DNA from: Comamonas endophytica
GTDB lineage: Bacteria; Pseudomonadota; Gammaproteobacteria; Burkholderiales; Burkholderiaceae_C
Assembly (NCBI RefSeq): GCF_023634805.2
Contig: NZ_CP106881.1
Span: 1,953,501-2,017,500, forward strand
DNA length: 64,000 nt
Direction of reading: 5' to 3'
Each line of letters opens with the position of its first letter. The stretch's first letter is position 1. Below the pieces are notes generated by a model. The model searched no databases, was not told the origin of the DNA, and was given only the letters and a program-made list of their open reading frames with translations. Positions 39,763 through 61,588 of this stretch are shown here, one piece after another. Position numbers and translations under genes: made by a program.

Positions 39763-41274
39763 CAGCTCTTCGGTCGCGCGCAGCCGCGTGTCGATGATCG
39801 AGGCCTCGAAGTGGTCGTTCTGCGCGCTGCTCTTGCGCGCCAGTTCCTGGCCCGCGCGGAAGCGGTCCACCGCCGCCGCATAGTCGTAATGCGCCGCCTG
39901 GGCCTCGCCCTCGGCGCGCAGCGCGCGCAGCGGCTGTCCCTGCGCCTGCCATAGCTGCGCCAGCAGCTGCCAGGCCGCCGCGTCGCGCGGATACAGCGTG
40001 ACCCAGGTCTGCAGCGGCTGGGCCATGCCCTGGGCCTGCCCCAGGCGCAGCAGGGTCTGCGTGCGCAGCATCAGCACCGGCCTGGAGGGCTTGCCGGCCT
40101 TGTCCTCGGCCTGCGCCAGCGGTGCCAGCGCATCCAGCGCCGCCTGCGGCTGCCCCGCGGCCAGCTCCAGCTCGGCCGCCAGCAGCGCCGCCTGGCGCAG
40201 CCCTGCGGCATCGCTGCCCAGAGCCTCCAGCAGCGCCGGCATTCCGGCGCGCGCCGGGCCCCAGTCCTGCAGCTGCATGTGCGCCAGCACCGCCGCATAC
40301 AGCGCCGCCACGCGCTGGCCCTGCGCCTTCTCGGCAAATCCCCCGGAGTCGGGCAGGCGCGCCCATTGGCGCAGTACGTCGACACCGGGCCGCGACAGCA
40401 CGCGCGCGCGCGCCGCCATCATCAGGTGCTCGAGCGAAGGCGTGGGCTGCGCCGAAGACTGCCCCGCGGGGATGCGCGACTGCATGTCGGCAATACGCTC
40501 GCTGGTCAGCGGGTGGCTGCGCAGATAGGGCCAGCTGCCGTTATCGTTGAGCCGGTTGGCCTGCTGCAGCCGGTCGAACATGCCAACCGCCCCCTGGGGC
40601 GCGAAGCCCGCGGGCGCCATCAGGCCATAGCCCAGGCGGTCGGCTTCGCGCTCCATGTCGCGCGAGAAATTGAGCTGGTTCTGCGCCGTCAGCGCCTGCC
40701 CGCCGATCATCAGCGCCTGCCCGGCATTGGGGCTCTTGGCCGCGGCCAGCGCGCCCAGGATCATCGAGGCCATCATCAGCGGCGTATGCCGGCTCTGCTG
40801 GGAAATCATGCGTGCGATATGCCGCTGGCTCACGTGGCTGAGCTCGTGCGCCAGTACCGAGGCCAGCTCGTCGCGCGTGCCGACCACGCCCACCAGCCCC
40901 AGGTGCACGCCGAAGTAGCCGCCGGGCAGGGCGAACGCATTGACCGAGCGGTCGCGCCCCAGCAGGATCTGCCAGGCGAAGCGCTCGTCCAGCTCGGGCG
41001 AAAGCTCCCCACGCGCGCGCGCCGCGGCCAGCAGCGGCTTCCAGATGCCCTCGATATATTCCTGCAGCGGCGCATCCTCGAGATAGTCGGGATCGCGGTA
41101 CAGCGAGCGGATGATGCGGTCGCCCATGCGCCGCTCGTCGCTGGTGGTGATGGACGCGCCATCGCCCAGCGTCGGCAACTGCAGCTGGGCCGCGACCGGA
41201 GGAGGAGTCAGGGCCGCGCAGGCCAGCGCCGCCGCAAGCAGCGCGCTCAAAGGGTTTCGTCGCAAGGAAGGCAT
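39724..41274 (-). CDS. M48-family metalloprotease with TPR-like C-terminus (BepA-like)
   Basis: A 516-residue exported zinc protease. The signal peptide (LSALLAAALACAALTPPPVA) ends near residue 29; the catalytic motif HELSH is at 143-147, and the third zinc ligand lies in MEREADRLGYGLM. The C-terminal half is rich in Ala/Leu helical repeats, as in BepA/YfgC, which quality-controls outer-membrane protein (LptD) assembly. ATG at 41274 gives the signal peptide; a longer in-frame GTG/TTG start would precede it with unrelated residues. The 3' end overlaps the holin-like gene by 39 bases. Confidence 0.93.
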   Translation of the reverse strand: MPSLRRNPLSALLAAALACAALTPPPVAAQLQLPTLGDGASITTSDERRMGDRIIRSLYRDPDYLEDAPLQEYIEGIWKPLLAAARARGELSPELDERFAWQILLGRDRSVNAFALPGGYFGVHLGLVGVVGTRDELASVLAHELSHVSQRHIARMISQQSRHTPLMMASMILGALAAAKSPNAGQALMIGGQALTAQNQLNFSRDMEREADRLGYGLMAPAGFAPQGAVGMFDRLQQANRLNDNGSWPYLRSHPLTSERIADMQSRIPAGQSSAQPTPSLEHLMMAARARVLSRPGVDVLRQWARLPDSGGFAEKAQGQRVAALYAAVLAHMQLQDWGPARAGMPALLEALGSDAAGLRQAALLAAELELAAGQPQAALDALAPLAQAEDKAGKPSRPVLMLRTQTLLRLGQAQGMAQPLQTWVTLYPRDAAAWQLLAQLWQAQGQPLRALRAEGEAQAAHYDYAAAVDRFRAGQELARKSSAQNDHFEASIIDTRLRATEELLREQAAQRRIDD

Positions 41275-51800: not shown

Positions 51801-53240
51801 ATGAAACTCTTCCAGCGCGAACAATATTCCCTGTTCGGCGGCATTCTCGACTGGATGCTGACGCCCTTGCTGCTGCTGTGGCCCGTGAGCCTGGGATTGA
51901 CCTGGCTGGTGGCACAGGGGCTGGCCAACCAGCCCTATGACCGGGCGCTGGAATACGACGCGCGCCTGCTGGCGCGGCAGGTGCAGCAGGGCCAGCTGCC
52001 ATCGGGCCCGGAGCACCCGCTGCGCACCGGCGCCAAGGACACCATCCATTACCAGGTGCTGGACCCGCAGGGCCGGCTGCTGGCGGGCCAGCCGGCCCTG
52101 CCGCGGCCGCCATGGACCGATGCCGAGCGGCGCGATGGCGCAGTGCAGCTGCATGACGCGGAGCTGCATGGCGTGGACCTGCGGCTGGCGGCGGTCTGGG
52201 TGCCGCTGGCGGGGCCGGACCAGCCGCTGGCGCTGGTGCAGGTGGCCGAGACCCGCGACCAGCGCAACGCGCTGGCGGGCGAAATCATCCGCGGCGTGAT
52301 GCTGCCGCAATTCGTCGTGCTGCCGCTGGCGGTGATGCTGGTGTGGATGGCGCTGGCGCGCGGCATCACGCCGCTGCACCGGCTGGAGGAGCGCATCCGT
52401 GCGCGCAAGCCAGACGATCTGTCGCCGCTCAATTTCCAGGAGGTGCCGCTGGAAGTCGCGCCGCTGGTCAATGCCGTCGACGACCTGCTGTGCCGGCTCA
52501 ATGAATCGCTGGCCACGCAAAAGCGTTTCCTGGCCGATGCCGCGCACCAGCTCAAGACGCCGCTGGCGGGCCTGCGCATGCAGGCCGACCTGGCGCAGCG
52601 CGAGGGCACGAGCACGCAGGAGCTCAAGCGCTCGCTGCAGCAGATCGGGCACGCCAGCATGCGCGCCAGCCACACCGTCAACCAGCTGCTGGCATTGGCG
52701 CGCGTCGAAGGCACGGGCACGGCGCTGGCCAAGCAGCGCTGCGACCTGGCGCGGCTGGTGATCGACGTGGTGCGCGATTCGGTACCGCGCGCGCTCGAGC
52801 GCCATGTGGACCTGGGCTATGACGGCGCCGAGCCTGGCGCTCCCGGAGTCTGGATGGAGGGCAACCCGACGCTGCTGACCGAGCTGGTGCGCAACCTGGT
52901 CGACAACGCCATCAACTACATGCCTTCGACACCCGAGCAGCCCGGTGTGGTCACGGTGCGGCTGTCGGCCGACAGCCGCGCGCGGACGCTGCTGCTGCAG
53001 GTCGAGGACACCGGGCCGGGCGTGCCCGAGGCCGAGCGGGCACTGGTGTTCCAGCCTTTCTACCGCGCGCTGGGCACGCCGGTCGACGGCTCGGGCCTGG
53101 GCCTGCCTATCGTGCAGGAGATCGCGCGCCAGCATGGCGCCCAGGTCACGCTCGAGCCGGCACGCCCTGGGCAGATGCCGCCGGGCGCGCGCTTCAGCGT
53201 GCGTTTCGCGGGGCTCCAGGTGCCGCCTGCGTCGAGCTGA
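51801..53240 (+). CDS. Sensor histidine kinase (TctE/QseC-like)
   Basis: A 479-residue kinase: TM1 at about 18-40, a short periplasmic sensor region with a 2CSK_N-like character (about 45-160), TM2 at about 165-187, HAMP-like linker, phospho-acceptor His249 in FLADAAHQLKTPLAGLRMQA, and a catalytic domain with LVRNLVDNAINYMP (N box), VEDTGPGVPEAERALVFQPF (G1/F) and GSGLGLPIVQEIA (G2). It is the partner of the upstream OmpR-type regulator. Its last 47 bases overlap the convergent LysR gene. Confidence 0.92.
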   Translation: MKLFQREQYSLFGGILDWMLTPLLLLWPVSLGLTWLVAQGLANQPYDRALEYDARLLARQVQQGQLPSGPEHPLRTGAKDTIHYQVLDPQGRLLAGQPALPRPPWTDAERRDGAVQLHDAELHGVDLRLAAVWVPLAGPDQPLALVQVAETRDQRNALAGEIIRGVMLPQFVVLPLAVMLVWMALARGITPLHRLEERIRARKPDDLSPLNFQEVPLEVAPLVNAVDDLLCRLNESLATQKRFLADAAHQLKTPLAGLRMQADLAQREGTSTQELKRSLQQIGHASMRASHTVNQLLALARVEGTGTALAKQRCDLARLVIDVVRDSVPRALERHVDLGYDGAEPGAPGVWMEGNPTLLTELVRNLVDNAINYMPSTPEQPGVVTVRLSADSRARTLLLQVEDTGPGVPEAERALVFQPFYRALGTPVDGSGLGLPIVQEIARQHGAQVTLEPARPGQMPPGARFSVRFAGLQVPPASS

Positions 53241-54213
53241 ATCGACCCAGGCCGGGCGGTGCGGACTGCGCGGCGGCAGCCAGCGCCGCCTGGCTGGCGG
53301 CAAGCATTTCGGCGCTCGATTGCGCGGCCGATTCCAGCAGCCAGTCGCGCAGCGAGACCAGCGCGCCATGGTGGGCGCGGCCCTCGGGGTAGAGGAACCA
53401 GTAGCCGAGGTGGCTGGTGTAGCCGGGCAGGGGCTCGGTGACCATGCCCGAGGCAATCTCGTCCTGCACCAGGCAGCGCGGCACCAGCGCCACGCCCATG
53501 CCGGCCATCACCGCGCGGATGATGCTCTGGAACTGGTCGAACTGCGGGCCGTCGAGGGCGCGCATGCCTTCCACGCCATGCGCCTGGCTCCATTGCGCCC
53601 AGGCGTCGGGAATGGTCACATGGCGCAGCCGGGTGCAGGCGATCAGGTCTTTGGGCTTGCGCAATTCGAGCGCACCAGGGCTGCCCCTGGGCGGAGCGAT
53701 CAGCGCCACCTGCTGTCCCACCAGATAGTGCGCGCGCGCGCCGGGCCAGTGGCCGTCGCCGAACAGGATCGAGCAGTCGAGCGTGGGACTCTCGAAATCA
53801 TAGCCATGCACATAGGGCACGAAATGCAGCGTGACCTGCGGCTCGCGCTGCTGGAACTGCGGCAGCCGCGGAATCAGCCACTTCGCACCAAAAGTGGGCA
53901 GCACCGACAGGTAGAGCGCACCGCTGCGGTCATCGCTGGTGATCAGCTCCAGCGTCGCCGCCTCGAGTTGCGACAGCAGCGCGCGCACCGCGCGTTCGTA
54001 GCGCTCGCCGGCGGGGGTCAGCGTCAGGCGCTTTCGGTTGCGCTCGAACAGCGTCACGCCGACCCATTTCTCCAGCTCCTGCACCTGCTTGCTGACGGCG
54101 CTTTGCGTCAGGTGCAGCGCCTCTGCCGCGCGCGACACACCCCCGAAACGCACCACGGTGGAGAAAGCCCGCAACAGGTGCACGGGAGGGTTGAGGCGAC
54201 GCAAACTGGACAT
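53194..54213 (-). CDS. LysR-family regulator (GcvA-like)
   Basis: A 339-residue regulator. The N-terminal winged helix-turn-helix reads LRAFSTVVRFGGVSRAAEAL, HLTQSAVSKQVQELEKWVGV, TLFERNRKRLTLTPAGERY; the effector-binding domain follows (about 95-300), with DCSILFGDGHWP and MGVALVPRCLVQDEIASGMV. It is divergent from the Bug receptor gene across an AT-rich gap of about 140 bases, which is where such regulators act, so it probably controls the receptor. The ATG at 54213 is preferred over a TTG at 54222. A Ser/Ala-rich C-terminal tail extends beyond the usual end. Confidence 0.9.
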   Translation of the reverse strand: MSSLRRLNPPVHLLRAFSTVVRFGGVSRAAEALHLTQSAVSKQVQELEKWVGVTLFERNRKRLTLTPAGERYERAVRALLSQLEAATLELITSDDRSGALYLSVLPTFGAKWLIPRLPQFQQREPQVTLHFVPYVHGYDFESPTLDCSILFGDGHWPGARAHYLVGQQVALIAPPRGSPGALELRKPKDLIACTRLRHVTIPDAWAQWSQAHGVEGMRALDGPQFDQFQSIIRAVMAGMGVALVPRCLVQDEIASGMVTEPLPGYTSHLGYWFLYPEGRAHHGALVSLRDWLLESAAQSSAEMLAASQAALAAAAQSAPPGLGRFSSTQAAPGAPRNAR

Positions 54214-57224: not shown

Positions 57225-58046
57225 TTAGGAGATGGGCTCGGCCTGGGGCCGCACGCTGATGTCCGAGCTGGTCACGGCGCGCAGGCCCCCGGGGGTCTGC
57301 ACGCGCAGCGCGCCATCGGGGCCCACGCCCTGGGCCAGGCCGCTCAGGCCGTCGCTCAGGTTGACGATGCGGCCCTGCAGCAGGTCGCGCTCGGCAAAGC
57401 GCGCACGCACGGGCGCGAAGCCGTGCTGCTCGAAAGCCAGCAGGGCCTGCACCAGCGGTGGCACGATGCGACCCAGCGCCGTGGGCGCATCCAGTGCCGG
57501 ATCGATGTCGCGCAGGCCCGCCGGCGTGGTGGACAGGCCCTCGCCCGCGGGCGCGCGCACGTTCAGGCCCACGCCGATGACGACATAGCGCGACGGGCCG
57601 CCGGGGCCGACGCCGCTGGCGGTTTCAATCAGGATGCCGCCGAGCTTGCGGTCGCCTTCGAGCCAGAGGTCGTTGGGCCACTTCAGGCCCAGGCGCGCGC
57701 GGTCCTCGCCAGCGGCGGGCAGCTGCGGCTGCAGGCTCTGCGCCAGGCTCACGCCGACGGCCAGCGACAATCCAGACCAGTCGGCCGGCGACATCGGCAG
57801 GCCGAGCGAAAAGGTCAGCGAATCGCCGATGCCGCTGACCCACTGGCGGCCCAGCCGCCCGCGGCCCGCGGTCTGGTGCTCGGTGACCAGCAGGATCGGT
57901 TCGCAGCGGCCCGTGCGCGCGCGGCGCATCAGCTCGGTATTGGTGGAATCGACCTCGGGCAGGATCTCGACCGTGAAGCCTTCGAGCAGCGGGCTGACGG
58001 CCTGCCACAGGGCTTCGGCAGGCCAGCGAATAGGAGTCAGGCTCAT
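57225..58046 (-). CDS. birA: Biotin-[acetyl-CoA-carboxylase] ligase
   Basis: Attaches biotin to the carboxyl-carrier protein through a biotinyl-AMP intermediate. The 273-residue protein has the ligase core with DSTNTELM (~34), GRGRLGRQW (61-69, ATP/biotin loop) and LKWPNDLW (~121), plus a C-terminal SH3-like domain. The N-terminal helix-turn-helix of E. coli BirA is missing, so this is a class I enzyme without repressor function. Its ATG overlaps the SET gene stop codon (ATGA), so they are translated together. Confidence 0.95.
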   Translation of the reverse strand: MSLTPIRWPAEALWQAVSPLLEGFTVEILPEVDSTNTELMRRARTGRCEPILLVTEHQTAGRGRLGRQWVSGIGDSLTFSLGLPMSPADWSGLSLAVGVSLAQSLQPQLPAAGEDRARLGLKWPNDLWLEGDRKLGGILIETASGVGPGGPSRYVVIGVGLNVRAPAGEGLSTTPAGLRDIDPALDAPTALGRIVPPLVQALLAFEQHGFAPVRARFAERDLLQGRIVNLSDGLSGLAQGVGPDGALRVQTPGGLRAVTSSDISVRPQAEPIS

Positions 58047-58549
58047 GCCTTGTCCCCGGGCATCGGCGGGCGCCAGCCGCGCTTGGGCGCCAGCAGCGTG
58101 CCGCGGCAGTTGGCCGCGCCGCAGTAGCAGGGGTACTCGGCCTTGAGCTTGGCCGTGTAGCGCTCCTCGAGCATCAGGCCGTAGTCGTAGTTCAGTTCCT
58201 CGCCCGCGGCGATGTTGCGCAGCGCGGTGATGAAGATGCGGCCGTCCCGCTCGTCGGCATAGCAGTTGGGGTTGCAGCTGTGGTTGATCCAGCGCGAGGA
58301 ATTGCCGCCGAAGTTGGCGTCGATCACGCGGTCTTCATCGACGTGGAAGTAGAAGGTGTGGTTGGGCTGCAGCGGATCGTGCGGGTGGCGGTCCTGGGCC
58401 TGCTGCCAGGAAATGATTTCACCCGTGTATTCGATGAGGACTTCGCCCTCGGCAATATCCTGCACGGCAAAGACCCCCTTGCCATGTACGCCGGAGCGCC
58501 GGGTCTGGATGCGGCGCGCGGCCGGCGAAGTGGACTGGGTGCGGGGCAT
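58043..58549 (-). CDS. SET-domain protein-lysine methyltransferase
   Basis: A complete 168-residue SET protein. Residues ~10-125 hold the SET core: RRSGVHGKGVFAVQDIAEGE, YTGEIISW, NFGGNSSRWINHSCNPNCYA (NHSCNPN at 89-95, binding S-adenosylmethionine and forming the pseudoknot) and ELNYDYGLM (Tyr near 121-123). A post-SET zinc motif follows: Cys141-x-Cys143-x4-Cys148, with Cys92 as likely fourth ligand. This is the eukaryotic-type layout for methylating lysine side chains; the substrate is unknown. It shares its control region with topB and is translationally coupled to birA. A TACAAT -10 lies at 58614-58619 on the minus strand. Confidence 0.93.
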   Translation of the reverse strand: MPRTQSTSPAARRIQTRRSGVHGKGVFAVQDIAEGEVLIEYTGEIISWQQAQDRHPHDPLQPNHTFYFHVDEDRVIDANFGGNSSRWINHSCNPNCYADERDGRIFITALRNIAAGEELNYDYGLMLEERYTAKLKAEYPCYCGAANCRGTLLAPKRGWRPPMPGDKA

Positions 58550-58569
58550 TGGAATCTCTGATACTTTGA

Positions 58570-58606
58570 ATATGCACACATGCGCGTGCGTGCGCGTACA
58601 CGCGTG
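58570..58606. promoter_or_regulatory. 37-bp perfect alternating purine/pyrimidine tract (Z-DNA-prone)
   Basis: Every base alternates purine/pyrimidine from A58570 to G58606, rich in CG, CA and TG steps (segments such as TGCGCGTGCGTGCGCG). Such tracts flip to left-handed Z-DNA under negative supercoiling. It lies 21 bases before the SET ATG, in the position of the SET transcript's first bases, and 57 bases before topB. Confidence 0.85.
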
Positions 58607-58621
58607 AGAACGGATTGTAGG

Positions 58622-58643
58622 AGCGCCGGCCCGGGCCGGCGCT
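58622..58643. promoter_or_regulatory. 22-bp perfect GC palindrome in the SET/topB control region
   Basis: The half-site AGCGCCGGCCC is followed immediately by its exact reverse complement, with no loop. It spans the -35 side of the putative SET promoter and ends 20 bases before the topB ATG. It could be an operator for a dimeric regulator or a cruciform. Confidence 0.8.
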
Positions 58644-58663
58644 TGAATTGACGAGAACACACA

Positions 58664-61588
58664 ATGACAAAAACACTGGTGATTGCCGAGAAGCCTTCCG
58701 TGGCGCAGGACATTGTCCGTGCGCTGACCCCGGTCGTGGGGAAGTTCGAGAAGCACGAGGACCATTTCGAGAACGACACCCATCTGGTGACCAGCGCCGT
58801 CGGCCATCTGGTGGAAATCCAGGCGCCCGAGCAGTTCGACGTCAAGCGCGGCAAGTGGAGCTTTGCCAATCTGCCGGTCATTCCGCCCTTCTTCGACCTG
58901 AAACCCGTCGACAAGACCAAGAGCCGCCTGAACGCCGTGGTGCGGCTGGCCAAGCGCAAGGACGTCACGCGCCTGGTCAACGCCTGCGACGCGGGCCGCG
59001 AGGGCGAGCTGATCTTCCGTCTGATCGAGCAGTACGCAGGCGGCGCCAAGCCGCTGGCCAAGCCGGTGCAGCGCCTGTGGCTGCAGTCGATGACGCCGCA
59101 GGCCATCCGCGCGGGCTTCGAGAGCCTGCGCAGCGACGAGCAGATGCAGGGCCTGGCGGACGCCGCGCGCAGCCGCTCCGAGGCCGACTGGCTGGTCGGC
59201 ATCAACGGCACGCGCGCCATGACGGCCTTCAATTCGCGCGATGGCGGCTTCTTCCTGACCACCGTCGGCCGGGTCCAGACCCCGACGCTGTCGGTGGTGG
59301 TCGAGCGCGAGGAGAAGATCCGCAAGTTCGTCAGCCGTGACTACTGGGAAATCCACGGCACCTTCGGCGCGCAGGCCGGCGAGTACCTGGGCAAGTGGTT
59401 CAACCCGCAATGGAAGAAAAGCGAAGACGTTGAGCTGCGCGCCGACCGCGTCTGGAGCCTGGCCGAAGCCCAGGCCATCGCCCAGGCGGCGCGCGGCAAG
59501 CCCGCCGTGGTGACCGAGGAAAGCAAGCCCACGACCCAGGCCTCGCCGCTGCTGTTCGACCTGACCAGCCTGCAGCGCGAGGCCAACGGCAAGTTCGGCT
59601 TCTCGGCCAAGACCACGCTGTCCATCGCCCAGAGCCTGTACGAGCGCCACAAGGCGTTGACCTATCCGCGTACCGATTCGCGCGCGCTGCCCGAGGACTA
59701 CCTGCCCGTCGCCCAGCAGACCTTCGAGATGCTCGCCAAGAGCGGCCTGCGCCACCTCGAGCCCTTTGCACAGCAGGCGCTGAAGAACAACTACGTGCGC
59801 CCGAGCAAGCGCATCTTCGACAACGCCAAGGTGTCGGACCACTTCGCCATCATCCCCACCACGCAGGCGCCGAGCGGCCTGAGCGAGGCCGAGCAAAAGC
59901 TCTATGACCTCGTGGTGCGCCGCTTCATGGCGGTGTTCTTCCCGAGCGCCGAGCACCAGGTGACGACGCGCATCAGCCGCGTCGAGACCCACCACTTCAA
60001 GACCGAGGGCAAGGTGCTGGTCAAGCCGGGCTGGCTGGCGATCTACGGCAAGGAAGCCGCGCACGAGGTCGAGGACGCCAAGGAAGGCGACAAGGGCCAG
60101 AACCTGGTGCCCGTGCAGCCCGGCGAGCAGCCGCTGGCGCGCGCTGTCGAGCCCAAGGGCCTGAAGACCAAGCCGCCGGCGCGCTACTCCGAAGCCACGC
60201 TGCTGGGCGCGATGGAAAGCGCCGGCAAGCAGGTCGAGGACGAGGAACTGCGCTCGGCGATGCAGGAAAAGGGCCTGGGCACGCCCGCGACGCGCGCCGC
60301 CATCATCGAAGGGCTGCTGACCGAGAAATACATCATGCGCGAGGGCCGGGAGCTGATTCCCACGGCCAAGGCCTTCCAGCTGATGACGCTGCTGCGCGGC
60401 CTGGGCGTCGAGGAGCTGTCGCGCGCCGACCTGACGGGGGAGTGGGAGTACAAGCTCTCGCAGATGGAAAAGGGCCAGCTCTCGCGCGAGGCTTTCATGC
60501 AGGAAATCGCGTCCATGACCGAGCGCCTGGTCAAGAAGGCCAAGGAATACGACCGCGACACCATTCCCGGCGACTACGCGACGCTCCAGACCCCCTGTCC
60601 CAATTGTTCAGGCGTGGTCAAGGAAAACTACCGCCGCTACGCCTGCACGGGTGCCGACGGCAAGAGCAGCGGCTGCGGCTTCTCGTTCACCAAATCGCCG
60701 GCCGGGCGCACCTTCGAGACGCACGAGGCCGAAGCCCTGCTGCGCGATCGGCGCATCGGCCCGCTCGAGGGCTTCCGTTCCAAGGCCGGCTGGCCCTTCG
60801 TGGCCGAAGTCGCCATCGTGCGCGACGAGGAGAACGACAACTACAAGCTCGAGTTCGACTTCGGCGACGACGCGAATGCCGAGGACACGGGCGAGATCGT
60901 CGATTTCTCGGCCCAGCAGCCGCTCGGCCCCTGCCCCAAGTGCGGCGCGCCGGTATTCCAGCATGGCAGCAACTATGTCTGCTCCAGGGCGGTGCCCACG
61001 CCCGCCCATCCCGTGCCCAGCTGCGACTTCAAGAGCGGCCAGATCATCCTGCAGCAGCCCATCGAGCGCGAGCAGATGGCCAAGCTGCTGGCCACCGGCA
61101 AGACCGACCTGCTGGAGAAGTTCGTCTCCAACCGCACGCGCCGCGCGTTCAAGGCCTTCCTGGTCTGGGACGCCGCGGAGGGCAAGGTGAATTTCGAGTT
61201 CGAGAAGCGCGATTCGAAATTCCCGGCGCGTAAGACCGCGGGTGCGCCGGCGAAAAAGGCGCCGGCCGCGAAGAAGACGGCGGCCAGGAAGGTGCCCGCT
61301 GCCAAGACGGCGGTGGCCAAGGCCGCGTCCGCGGCCGTGCCCAAGGCGCCGCGCAAGGTCGCCTCCAATCTGACGCCCAGCCCCGCGCTGGCCGCGGTGA
61401 TCGGCGACGGGCAGGTCGCGCGCACTGAGGTCATCAAGAAGATCTGGGACTACGTGAAGGCCAACAACCTGCAGGACGCGAGCAACAAGCGTGCGATCAA
61501 TGCCGATGCCCGGCTGAAGCCGGTGTTCGGCAAGGACCAGATCACGATGTTCGAGCTGGCCGGCATCGTCGGCAAGCATCTCGCCTGA
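58664..61588 (+). CDS. topB: DNA topoisomerase III with H1-like linker and SWIB domain
   Basis: Type IA topoisomerase that decatenates DNA. The 974-residue protein has a Toprim domain (MTKTLVIAEKPSVAQDIVRA ... DAGREGELI), the catalytic Tyr in LTYPRTDSRALPEDY, and zinc-ribbon-like repeats (CPNCSGVVKENYRRYACTGA; CPKCGAPVFQHGSNYVC). After residue ~850 comes a Lys/Ala/Pro-rich tract like histone H1 tails (KKAPAAKKTAARK, KAPRKVA), then a C-terminal SWIB domain (about 901-974: VIKKIWDYVKANNLQD, ADARLKPVFGKDQITMFELA). E. coli TopB lacks the SWIB part. The gene is divergent from the SET gene. Confidence 0.96.
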   Translation: MTKTLVIAEKPSVAQDIVRALTPVVGKFEKHEDHFENDTHLVTSAVGHLVEIQAPEQFDVKRGKWSFANLPVIPPFFDLKPVDKTKSRLNAVVRLAKRKDVTRLVNACDAGREGELIFRLIEQYAGGAKPLAKPVQRLWLQSMTPQAIRAGFESLRSDEQMQGLADAARSRSEADWLVGINGTRAMTAFNSRDGGFFLTTVGRVQTPTLSVVVEREEKIRKFVSRDYWEIHGTFGAQAGEYLGKWFNPQWKKSEDVELRADRVWSLAEAQAIAQAARGKPAVVTEESKPTTQASPLLFDLTSLQREANGKFGFSAKTTLSIAQSLYERHKALTYPRTDSRALPEDYLPVAQQTFEMLAKSGLRHLEPFAQQALKNNYVRPSKRIFDNAKVSDHFAIIPTTQAPSGLSEAEQKLYDLVVRRFMAVFFPSAEHQVTTRISRVETHHFKTEGKVLVKPGWLAIYGKEAAHEVEDAKEGDKGQNLVPVQPGEQPLARAVEPKGLKTKPPARYSEATLLGAMESAGKQVEDEELRSAMQEKGLGTPATRAAIIEGLLTEKYIMREGRELIPTAKAFQLMTLLRGLGVEELSRADLTGEWEYKLSQMEKGQLSREAFMQEIASMTERLVKKAKEYDRDTIPGDYATLQTPCPNCSGVVKENYRRYACTGADGKSSGCGFSFTKSPAGRTFETHEAEALLRDRRIGPLEGFRSKAGWPFVAEVAIVRDEENDNYKLEFDFGDDANAEDTGEIVDFSAQQPLGPCPKCGAPVFQHGSNYVCSRAVPTPAHPVPSCDFKSGQIILQQPIEREQMAKLLATGKTDLLEKFVSNRTRRAFKAFLVWDAAEGKVNFEFEKRDSKFPARKTAGAPAKKAPAAKKTAARKVPAAKTAVAKAASAAVPKAPRKVASNLTPSPALAAVIGDGQVARTEVIKKIWDYVKANNLQDASNKRAINADARLKPVFGKDQITMFELAGIVGKHLA

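What the first reader, a model, noticed from the sequence alone, without database searches (positions are those of the whole stretch)
58570..58643. Z-DNA-prone tract and perfect palindrome in the SET/topB intergenic region
58570-58606 is a 37-bp run of perfect purine/pyrimidine alternation rich in CG and CA/TG, and 58622-58643 is a 22-bp perfect palindrome. Between them, TACAAT (minus strand, 58614-58619) would start the SET transcript right at the edge of the Z tract. Placing a supercoil-sensitive element at the promoter of a topoisomerase gene suggests a topological feedback sensor.
Basis: partly seen in the sequence, partly recalled or inferred. Interest (0 to 1): 0.75.

Follow-up and report, generated by a model that had tools for sequence, protein, structure and literature searches.

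The report
Conserved Z-DNA-prone tract at topB promoters
Between two facing promoters in front of what appears to be the cell's only type IA topoisomerase gene lies a stretch of strictly alternating purines and pyrimidines, and in most relatives evolution has kept the alternation while letting the letters change, as expected if the DNA's ability to flip into the left-handed Z form is what matters there.

Summary
The tract is real: 58570-58606 is a perfect 37-bp purine/pyrimidine (RY) alternation. It is the only (RY)12 match in the 4.49-Mb genome; the next run in the window is 16 bp.

It is conserved. A blind search of 150 family genomes gave 55 sites with 28+ bp of alternation; 39 lie directly upstream of SET, facing topB or tlpA-topB. 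Of 141 SET-upstream regions, 126 carry a run of 12+ bp.

Selection acts on alternation, not sequence: tract ts/tv 2.69 against 0.61 in flanks (p=8e-27), 60 of 75 indels even. RNA folding adds nothing beyond alternation.

The tract fills the interval between two facing -10 boxes and persists at topB in 3 of 6 testable SET-less genomes. The type IA core domain occurs once in 124 of 150 genomes; no match passes the topA cut-off in 39 of 40.

Best reading: a torsion-responsive, Z-prone element shared by both promoters. Z formation, transcriptional effect and sign are untested. The palindrome is not conserved.

The parts
58570..58606 (.). 37-bp perfect purine/pyrimidine alternation, the conserved Z-DNA-prone tract
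   Evidence: Read directly; only (RY)12 match in the genome; conserved in family; selection on alternation.
58559..58567 (+). Extended -10 of topB: TG (58559-58560), A, TACTTT (58562-58567)
   Evidence: TAnnnT box left of the tract in 119 of 126 loci, chance 0.45; TG before it in 64 of 111. TSS expected near 58574, inside the tract (inference).
58614..58619 (-). -10 of SET, TACAAT on the minus strand
   Evidence: TAnnnT box right of the tract in 117 of 126 loci (TACAAT 105, TAGAAT 7, TATACT 2), chance 0.28. TSS expected near 58605-58607 (inference). No -35 clearly above chance: 15 of 111 with 4+ of 6 matches, 11.8% in shuffles.
58622..58643 (.). 22-bp perfect palindrome; probably a hairpin in the topB leader, not part of the conserved element
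   Evidence: fold z -3.4 for the window leader (L108), but z < -2 in only 15 of the 75 leaders folded, with unlike sequences.
58043..58549 (-). SET-domain protein gene (168 aa)
   Evidence: PF00856, E=2.4e-25; best-matching solved structures are histone-lysine methyltransferases.
58664..61588 (+). topB: topoisomerase III-type type IA enzyme, 974 aa, with a Lys/Ala-rich tail and C-terminal SWIB domain
   Evidence: PF01131, PF13342, PF02201; NF011313 and TIGR01056 over cut-off; only PF01131 match in the genome.

Best explanation
The tract is a structural cis-element shared by two facing promoters. The topB promoter (extended -10 on the left edge, reading right) and the SET promoter (TACAAT on the right edge, reading left) start transcription at opposite ends of the tract, so it is the first part of both transcripts. 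SHOWN: where the tract exists, alternation is bounded by the two conserved -10-like boxes; it is kept in most of the family; selection acts against transversions and odd-length indels while the base sequence drifts. INFERRED: the boxes are active promoters, and RY alternation matters because it allows a B-to-Z flip. Negative torsion (global, or left behind by the two RNA polymerases leaving in opposite directions) flips the tract; a 24-37 bp Z segment would absorb roughly 5-7 turns and hinder escape or re-initiation at both promoters. Expression of the only type IA topoisomerase in most of these bacteria would thus be coupled to local torsion. The sign is not settled: a simple Z block would switch topB off at high negative supercoiling, opposite to the E. 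coli topA logic, so it may act as a burst limiter or torsion buffer rather than a thermostat.
For: Only (RY)12 match in the genome. 39 of 55 sites with 28+ bp of alternation found blind in 150 family genomes lie directly upstream of SET, while 7 of 242 genomes of the order outside the family have any such site. Run of 12+ bp in 126 of 141 SET-upstream regions, median 24. 51 pairs chosen by topB similarity: tract ts/tv 194/72 vs 623/1023 in flanks and 625/783 at topB third codon positions; indels 60 even, 15 odd; control segments in topB coding show no effect (63/94). Alternation 0.90-1.00 at 12-31 nt from the right box and 0.91-1.00 at 13-30 nt from the left box, 0.20-0.67 beyond the right box (111 loci already chosen for a run of 12+ and both boxes). 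RNA energy no better than RY-preserving permutations. Tract of 17, 21 and 17 bp kept at topB in 3 of 6 testable SET-less genomes. Computed onset near sigma -0.0385 in a 5-kb domain (Table 1 energies of PMC3024258). Tracts with more A+T are longer, rho 0.39, n=111, not phylogeny-corrected. One PF01131 match in 124 of 150 genomes.
Against: No direct evidence of Z-DNA or of any supercoiling response. Onset is not special: runs at 40398 and 51347 reach it slightly earlier (-0.0375) and one at 53728 about as early (-0.0395). Within the alternation, CG and TA steps are fewer and TG steps more numerous than in RY-preserving permutations (z -3.4, -2.6, +4.5); fewer CG is not what maximal Z propensity predicts. 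The tract is strand-asymmetric, G/T-rich on the topB strand, which Z-DNA does not predict. 15 of 141 regions lack a 12+ run. Among SET-less genomes one has only interrupted alternation (longest run 11) and two of one genus have none. Loss is not significantly linked to a second type IA enzyme (4 of 15 vs 20 of 126, p=0.29). The window shows no consensus promoter, and SET promoters show no -35 clearly above chance.
Confidence: 0.55

Rival explanations
1. Promoter-proximal pausing element. RNA polymerase pauses at G(-10) Y(-1) G(+1) (consensus recalled, from no call); a G-rich RY alternation offers this at every second base in both directions, so the tract would slow both polymerases just after initiation and set promoter occupancy, without Z-DNA.
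For: The tract is the inferred initial transcribed region of both genes. The motif is enriched on the topB strand, z=+3.3 against RY-preserving permutation, and the topB strand is G/T-rich.
Against: The motif is depleted on the SET strand (z=-4.5), so it cannot explain symmetric alternation. Near-strict avoidance of RR and YY steps exceeds what pausing needs.
Confidence: 0.17
2. Binding site for a protein that reads RY alternation or a short repeated motif (for example a nucleoid protein or a topoisomerase).
For: The core GCACACATGCGCGTGCGCG recurs in several Acidovorax/Comamonas-type loci.
Against: Sequence differs widely between clades while alternation persists; exact runs reach 63 bp and vary in length; tract divergence (17%) is close to that of flanks (19.5%).
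Confidence: 0.12
3. RNA element: the tract forms a hairpin in one or both leaders (or a duplex between the overlapping leaders) that controls translation or stability.
For: RY alternation is self-complementary, so folding energy is far below that of fully shuffled sequence (mean z -3.3 and -2.7); some interrupted tracts look like tandem hairpins by eye (printout).
Against: With alternation held fixed, the energy is ordinary (mean z -0.23 and -0.36; 6 of 111 below -2 on each strand). A hairpin would tolerate G-C to C-G swaps, but transversions are what is depleted. No Rfam match reaches its gathering score in 58300-58900.
Confidence: 0.1
4. Mutational product: a dinucleotide-type microsatellite, or a hotspot created by facing promoters, with no function.
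For: Indels of 2 and 4 bp dominate. Several of the 16 non-SET alternations are simple repeats by eye. Repeat coverage of the tracts is not low (0.62 against 0.78 in the 16 others).
Against: Transversions are depleted about 2.6-fold relative to flanks, although transitions are not. The tract is not one repeat unit, persists over what must be more than a hundred genera (126 of 141 loci from 119 genera), and is absent at the SET paralogues that could be read.
Confidence: 0.06

Closest known systems
Supercoiling-sensitive topoisomerase promoters (E. coli topA and gyrA/gyrB; mycobacterial topoI)
   Same: Topoisomerase gene with a promoter architecture that could respond to torsion. PMC4770202 (abstract and outline seen) reports autoregulation of mycobacterial topoI; PMC6639932 (section 7 read) summarises topA induction by negative supercoiling and gyrase induction by relaxation.
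   Different: PMC4770202's abstract points to sub-optimal -35/-10 spacing and upstream transcription; no long RY alternation is mentioned in the parts I saw. Here the gene is topB-type, and the promoter faces a second promoter across the tract.
Z-DNA-forming elements near eukaryotic start sites (c-myc, mouse TSS survey)
   Same: Z-prone sequence at transcription starts (PMC3024258, passages seen).
   Different: Bacterial; kept in most of a family at one locus; bounded by two facing -10-like boxes; selection on alternation measured.
Overlapping divergent promoters of the mycobacterial gyrase operon (Unniraman and Nagaraja 1999)
   Same: Overlapping promoter pair at a topoisomerase gene, proposed to give a supercoiling response (architecture recalled; only the citation was seen, in PMC6639932).
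   Different: Gyrase, not a type IA enzyme; no RY tract recalled.
Genome surveys of RY patterns in prokaryotes (PMC4060949)
   Same: Same pattern class (RY12 and similar), said to be suppressed in beta-proteobacteria (passages and section 3.6 read). It also cites an earlier survey that found RY patterns over-represented in beta-proteobacteria under a simpler null model.
   Different: The authors found no strong association with a class of genes in the genomes they examined in detail; here there is a single-locus association.

Membership tests
Z-DNA-forming regulatory element | Long RY alternation rich in CG and CA/TG | tested here: met
   37 bp in the window; 126 of 141 regions with a run of 12+; 73% GC in 111 tracts.
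Z-DNA-forming regulatory element | Predicted B-Z transition at physiological superhelicity, easier than elsewhere | tested here: inconclusive
   Onset about -0.0385, but two short GC-rich runs in the same window flip slightly earlier.
Z-DNA-forming regulatory element | Z form present in cells and altering transcription | not testable with these tools
   Needs probing and reporters.
Supercoiling-homeostatic topoisomerase promoter | Drives a topoisomerase that sets negative supercoiling | tested here: inconclusive
   Type IA enzyme, the only PF01131 match in the genome; that it relaxes the chromosome in vivo is inferred, not tested.
Supercoiling-homeostatic topoisomerase promoter | Promoter activity changes with supercoiling | not testable with these tools
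   No expression data.
Structured RNA leader / riboswitch | Known family match, or folding beyond composition | tested here: not met
   Two Rfam hits far below gathering score; mean z -0.23 and -0.36 with alternation fixed.
Coding sequence (N-terminal extension of SET) | Indels in multiples of three | tested here: not met
   15 of 75 tract indels are multiples of three; 2 and 4 dominate.
Sequence-specific operator | Conserved base sequence across the family | tested here: not met
   Alternation is conserved, letters are not.
Simple microsatellite | One short unit in tandem, neutral substitution pattern | tested here: not met
   Neutral pattern rejected: ts/tv 2.69 vs 0.61. Repeat content alone is not decisive: coverage 0.62 vs 0.78 in the 16 other alternations.

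The most novel reading that the evidence does not exclude
A bacterial 'flipon': a cis-element kept across most of a family whose only conserved property is RY alternation, held by selection because a B-to-Z flip between two facing promoters senses torsion and gates expression of the cell's sole type IA topoisomerase, in bacteria that have dispensed with canonical topA.
Probability: 0.42. Interest if true: 0.92.

Novelty: new variant of a known kind. Interest (0 to 1): 0.8.

Why it matters
Whether Z-DNA has a physiological job in bacteria is, to my knowledge, an old open question. Here evolution appears to have run the control: letters change, alternation stays, at one locus, in most of a family. 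One reporter experiment (alternation kept with changed letters, versus alternation broken with the same composition) would test it directly. The same data indicate that this family largely lacks canonical topA and has one topB-type enzyme, although a review states that topoisomerase I is found in all bacteria (PMC7140829, passages seen), so how these cells control negative supercoiling is itself open.

Tried and rejected
Palindrome as a conserved operator: rejected; nearest other genomic matches have 3 mismatches, relatives have unlike inverted repeats or none, and the window holds a second 22-bp palindrome at 52958-52979. RNA structure, coding extension and simple repeat: see rivals and membership rows. 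Full sigma-70 promoter or terminator by consensus: none found in 58400-58800. Tract belonging to SET: not favoured; of 8 SET paralogues fetched, 6 could be read and have runs of 8-11 bp (2 gave no SET hit), and the 22 SETs of other families in the order (L295-L316) have runs of 6-12 bp, 1 of 22 reaching 12, while topB keeps 17, 21 and 17 bp in 3 of 6 testable SET-less genomes. Loss of the tract explained by a second type IA topoisomerase: suggested by 3 of 6 genomes with two PF01131 matches among 40, not significant in the large sample (4 of 15 vs 20 of 126, p=0.29). Unusually low B-Z threshold: not supported. Plasmid search with 57900-59400: 42 records matched, and the 20 listed match only in topoisomerase genes. 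Searches of the held open-access library listed no paper that, by title and start of abstract, concerns an RY tract at topB or absence of topA in this family; subscription journals are mostly not held.

Known limits: one search used a wrong reading frame for SET and was redone. The RR-start pattern misses even-length runs that begin after YY and end before RR, so counts are lower bounds. One search used 51 of 56 pairs (5 had no run of 16+ in either member); its 'rest' includes about 60 nt of topB. One search's shuffles keep the tract's own dinucleotides, which makes that control conservative; 107 of 141 regions beat all 100 shuffles by segment score. One search is a simplified single-run model; the supercoil constant and junction twist are recalled, and the dinucleotide energies and 5 kcal per junction come from PMC3024258.

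Full report
OBSERVATION. Window 58570-58606 is a perfect 37-bp purine/pyrimidine alternation. The next longest run in the 64-kb window is 16 bp. The pattern (RY)12 matches nowhere else in the 4.49-Mb genome. At the window's alternating-step frequency of 0.545, about 1e-5 runs of this length are expected per window. The palindrome 58622-58643 is also real, but another of the same length exists at 52958-52979.

NEIGHBOURS. Left, on the minus strand, is a 168-aa SET-domain protein (58043-58549). Right, on the plus strand, is a 974-aa topoisomerase III-type enzyme with Toprim_Crpt repeats, a Lys/Ala-rich tail and a C-terminal SWIB domain. Beyond SET lies a biotin protein ligase-like gene.

CONSERVATION. 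Eighty topB relatives in named genomes showed alternations of differing length and sequence at the same place: run of 12+ bp in 75 of 79 scorable, 24+ in 58 of 79. To avoid bias I searched 150 whole family genomes for any R+(RY)14 stretch, wherever it lay: 49 genomes matched, at 55 distinct sites (62 rows, 7 of them the same site on the other strand). All 55 were fetched. 39 lie directly upstream of SET, with topB on the other side in 33 and a TlpA-like gene followed by topB in 6; 16 lie elsewhere. One of the 39, L114, has only a partial SET match. The same pattern in 250 genomes of the order matched 7 of the 242 outside the family. SET was found in 141 of 150 family genomes, and I read one SET-upstream region per genome (39 already fetched, 102): longest run median 24, 12+ in 126 of 141, 24+ in 73, against a mean of 9.5 in dinucleotide shuffles; 15 of 141 have no run of 12, one of them cut by a contig end.

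WHAT IS SELECTED. I took 56 disjoint pairs by topB similarity; in 51 at least one member had a run of 16+. Within that member's tract, differences were 194 transitions and 72 transversions; in the rest of the aligned stretch 623 and 1023; at topB third codon positions 625 and 783. Overall divergence was 17%, 19.5% and 27.6%. Tract indels were even in 60 of 75 cases; elsewhere in 193 of 462 (tallied's list, tested). The same procedure on the best alternating segment inside topB coding gave 63/94, no effect. So letters drift but alternation is kept. RNA folding does not explain it: with R and Y positions fixed, 111 tracts have mean z -0.23 and -0.36 on the two strands. A reading frame does not explain it either: 15 of 75 indels are multiples of three.

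PROMOTER GEOMETRY. In 117 of 126 loci a minus-strand -10-like box (TACAAT 105, TAGAAT 7, TATACT 2, three others once each) follows the tract, 6-13 bp away in 114 of 117; in 119 of 126 a plus-strand TAnnnT precedes it (chance 0.28 and 0.45). In the 111 loci with both boxes, alternation is 0.90-1.00 at 12-31 nt from the right box and 0.20-0.67 beyond it (these loci were chosen for having a run of 12+). The two boxes are 36-90 bp apart, median 48. The topB box has TG before it in 64 of 111 and a -35 with 4+ of 6 matches in 39 of 111 (15% in shuffles); the SET box has one in 15 of 111 (12% in shuffles). The tract is therefore probably the shared initial transcribed region of two facing promoters. 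This rests on conservation; no start sites were mapped.

WHICH GENE IT FOLLOWS. In 9 of 150 genomes SET was not found. Of these, 6 could be tested (2 lacked the topB start, 1 was cut by a contig end but shows a 19-bp run). Three keep a tract in front of topB (17, 21 and 17 bp; two of these genomes are of one genus), one has only interrupted alternation (longest run 11), and two of one genus have none. SET paralogues that could be read (6 of 8) have runs of 8-11 bp, and 22 SETs of other families in the order have runs of 6-12 bp. Where a TlpA-like gene intervenes, the tract sits between SET and tlpA-topB. This suggests, without proving, that it goes with the topB transcription unit.

SOLE TYPE IA ENZYME. 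The type IA core domain (PF01131) occurs once in the own genome and once in 124 of 150 family genomes; 24 have two or more and 2 have none, probably through assembly gaps (tally mine). The topA model TIGR01051 passes its cut-off in 1 of 40 family genomes, and in 10 of 14 control genomes. So topB-type enzymes appear to stand in for topA here, although PMC7140829 states that topo I is found in all bacteria (passages seen).

MECHANISM. RY alternation is the sequence requirement of Z-DNA. With the energies of PMC3024258 Table 1 in a simplified model, the window tract begins to flip near sigma -0.0385 in a 5-kb domain. Two short GC-rich runs in the window flip at -0.0375, so length (twist absorbed) rather than onset distinguishes the tract. 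Tracts with more A+T are longer (rho 0.39, n=111), as expected if weaker alternation needs more length, but without phylogenetic correction. Against Z alone: CG steps are slightly depleted and TG enriched, and the topB strand is G/T-rich with more pause-like motifs than expected, the SET strand with fewer. I hold the torsion/Z reading at 0.55, pausing at 0.17, a protein reader at 0.12, an RNA element at 0.10 and a mutational product at 0.06.

KNOWN WORK. Supercoiling-responsive topoisomerase promoters are well known (PMC4770202 abstract; PMC6639932 section 7), and Z-prone sites near eukaryotic starts are known (PMC3024258 passages). A genome survey found RY patterns suppressed in beta-proteobacteria and no strong association with a gene class in the genomes examined in detail, and cites an earlier survey with the opposite finding for beta-proteobacteria (PMC4060949). 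I found no description of this element in the held library. I therefore file it as a new variant of a known kind: it may work like a supercoiling-responsive topoisomerase promoter, but membership cannot be claimed without expression data.

Noticed in passing
window 58664-61588 and family genomes: The family largely lacks canonical topA; the type IA core domain occurs once in 124 of 150 genomes and the topA model passes its cut-off in 1 of 40.
   Followed up: partly
window 58043-58549 and 58664-61588: A SET methyltransferase-like protein is divergently paired with a topoisomerase that has a Lys/Ala-rich, histone H1-like tail and a SWIB domain; the tail may be the SET substrate (speculation).
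   Followed up: no
L122, L123, L127, L136, L138, L149, L066, L254-L256: A TlpA-like thioredoxin-fold gene sits between the tract (or its lost site) and topB in some genera.
   Followed up: partly
tract in 111 loci: Strand asymmetry: G/T-rich on the topB strand, pause-like motif up on the topB strand and down on the SET strand; unexplained.
   Followed up: partly
window 52958-52979: A second perfect 22-bp palindrome.
   Followed up: no
L146 and L153 (G023 contig C9): The same RY-rich block occurs twice in a 5-kb contig, with no SET or topB match nearby.
   Followed up: no
L001, L032: Records titled Pantoea sp. and Singulisphaera sp. carry topB and tract like those of this family; titles probably wrong or bins contaminated.
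   Followed up: no
G098 (L180) and G050: No PF01131 match in these two draft genomes; L180's contig ends just inside topB and G050 has only a topB fragment at a contig start, so probably assembly gaps.
   Followed up: partly
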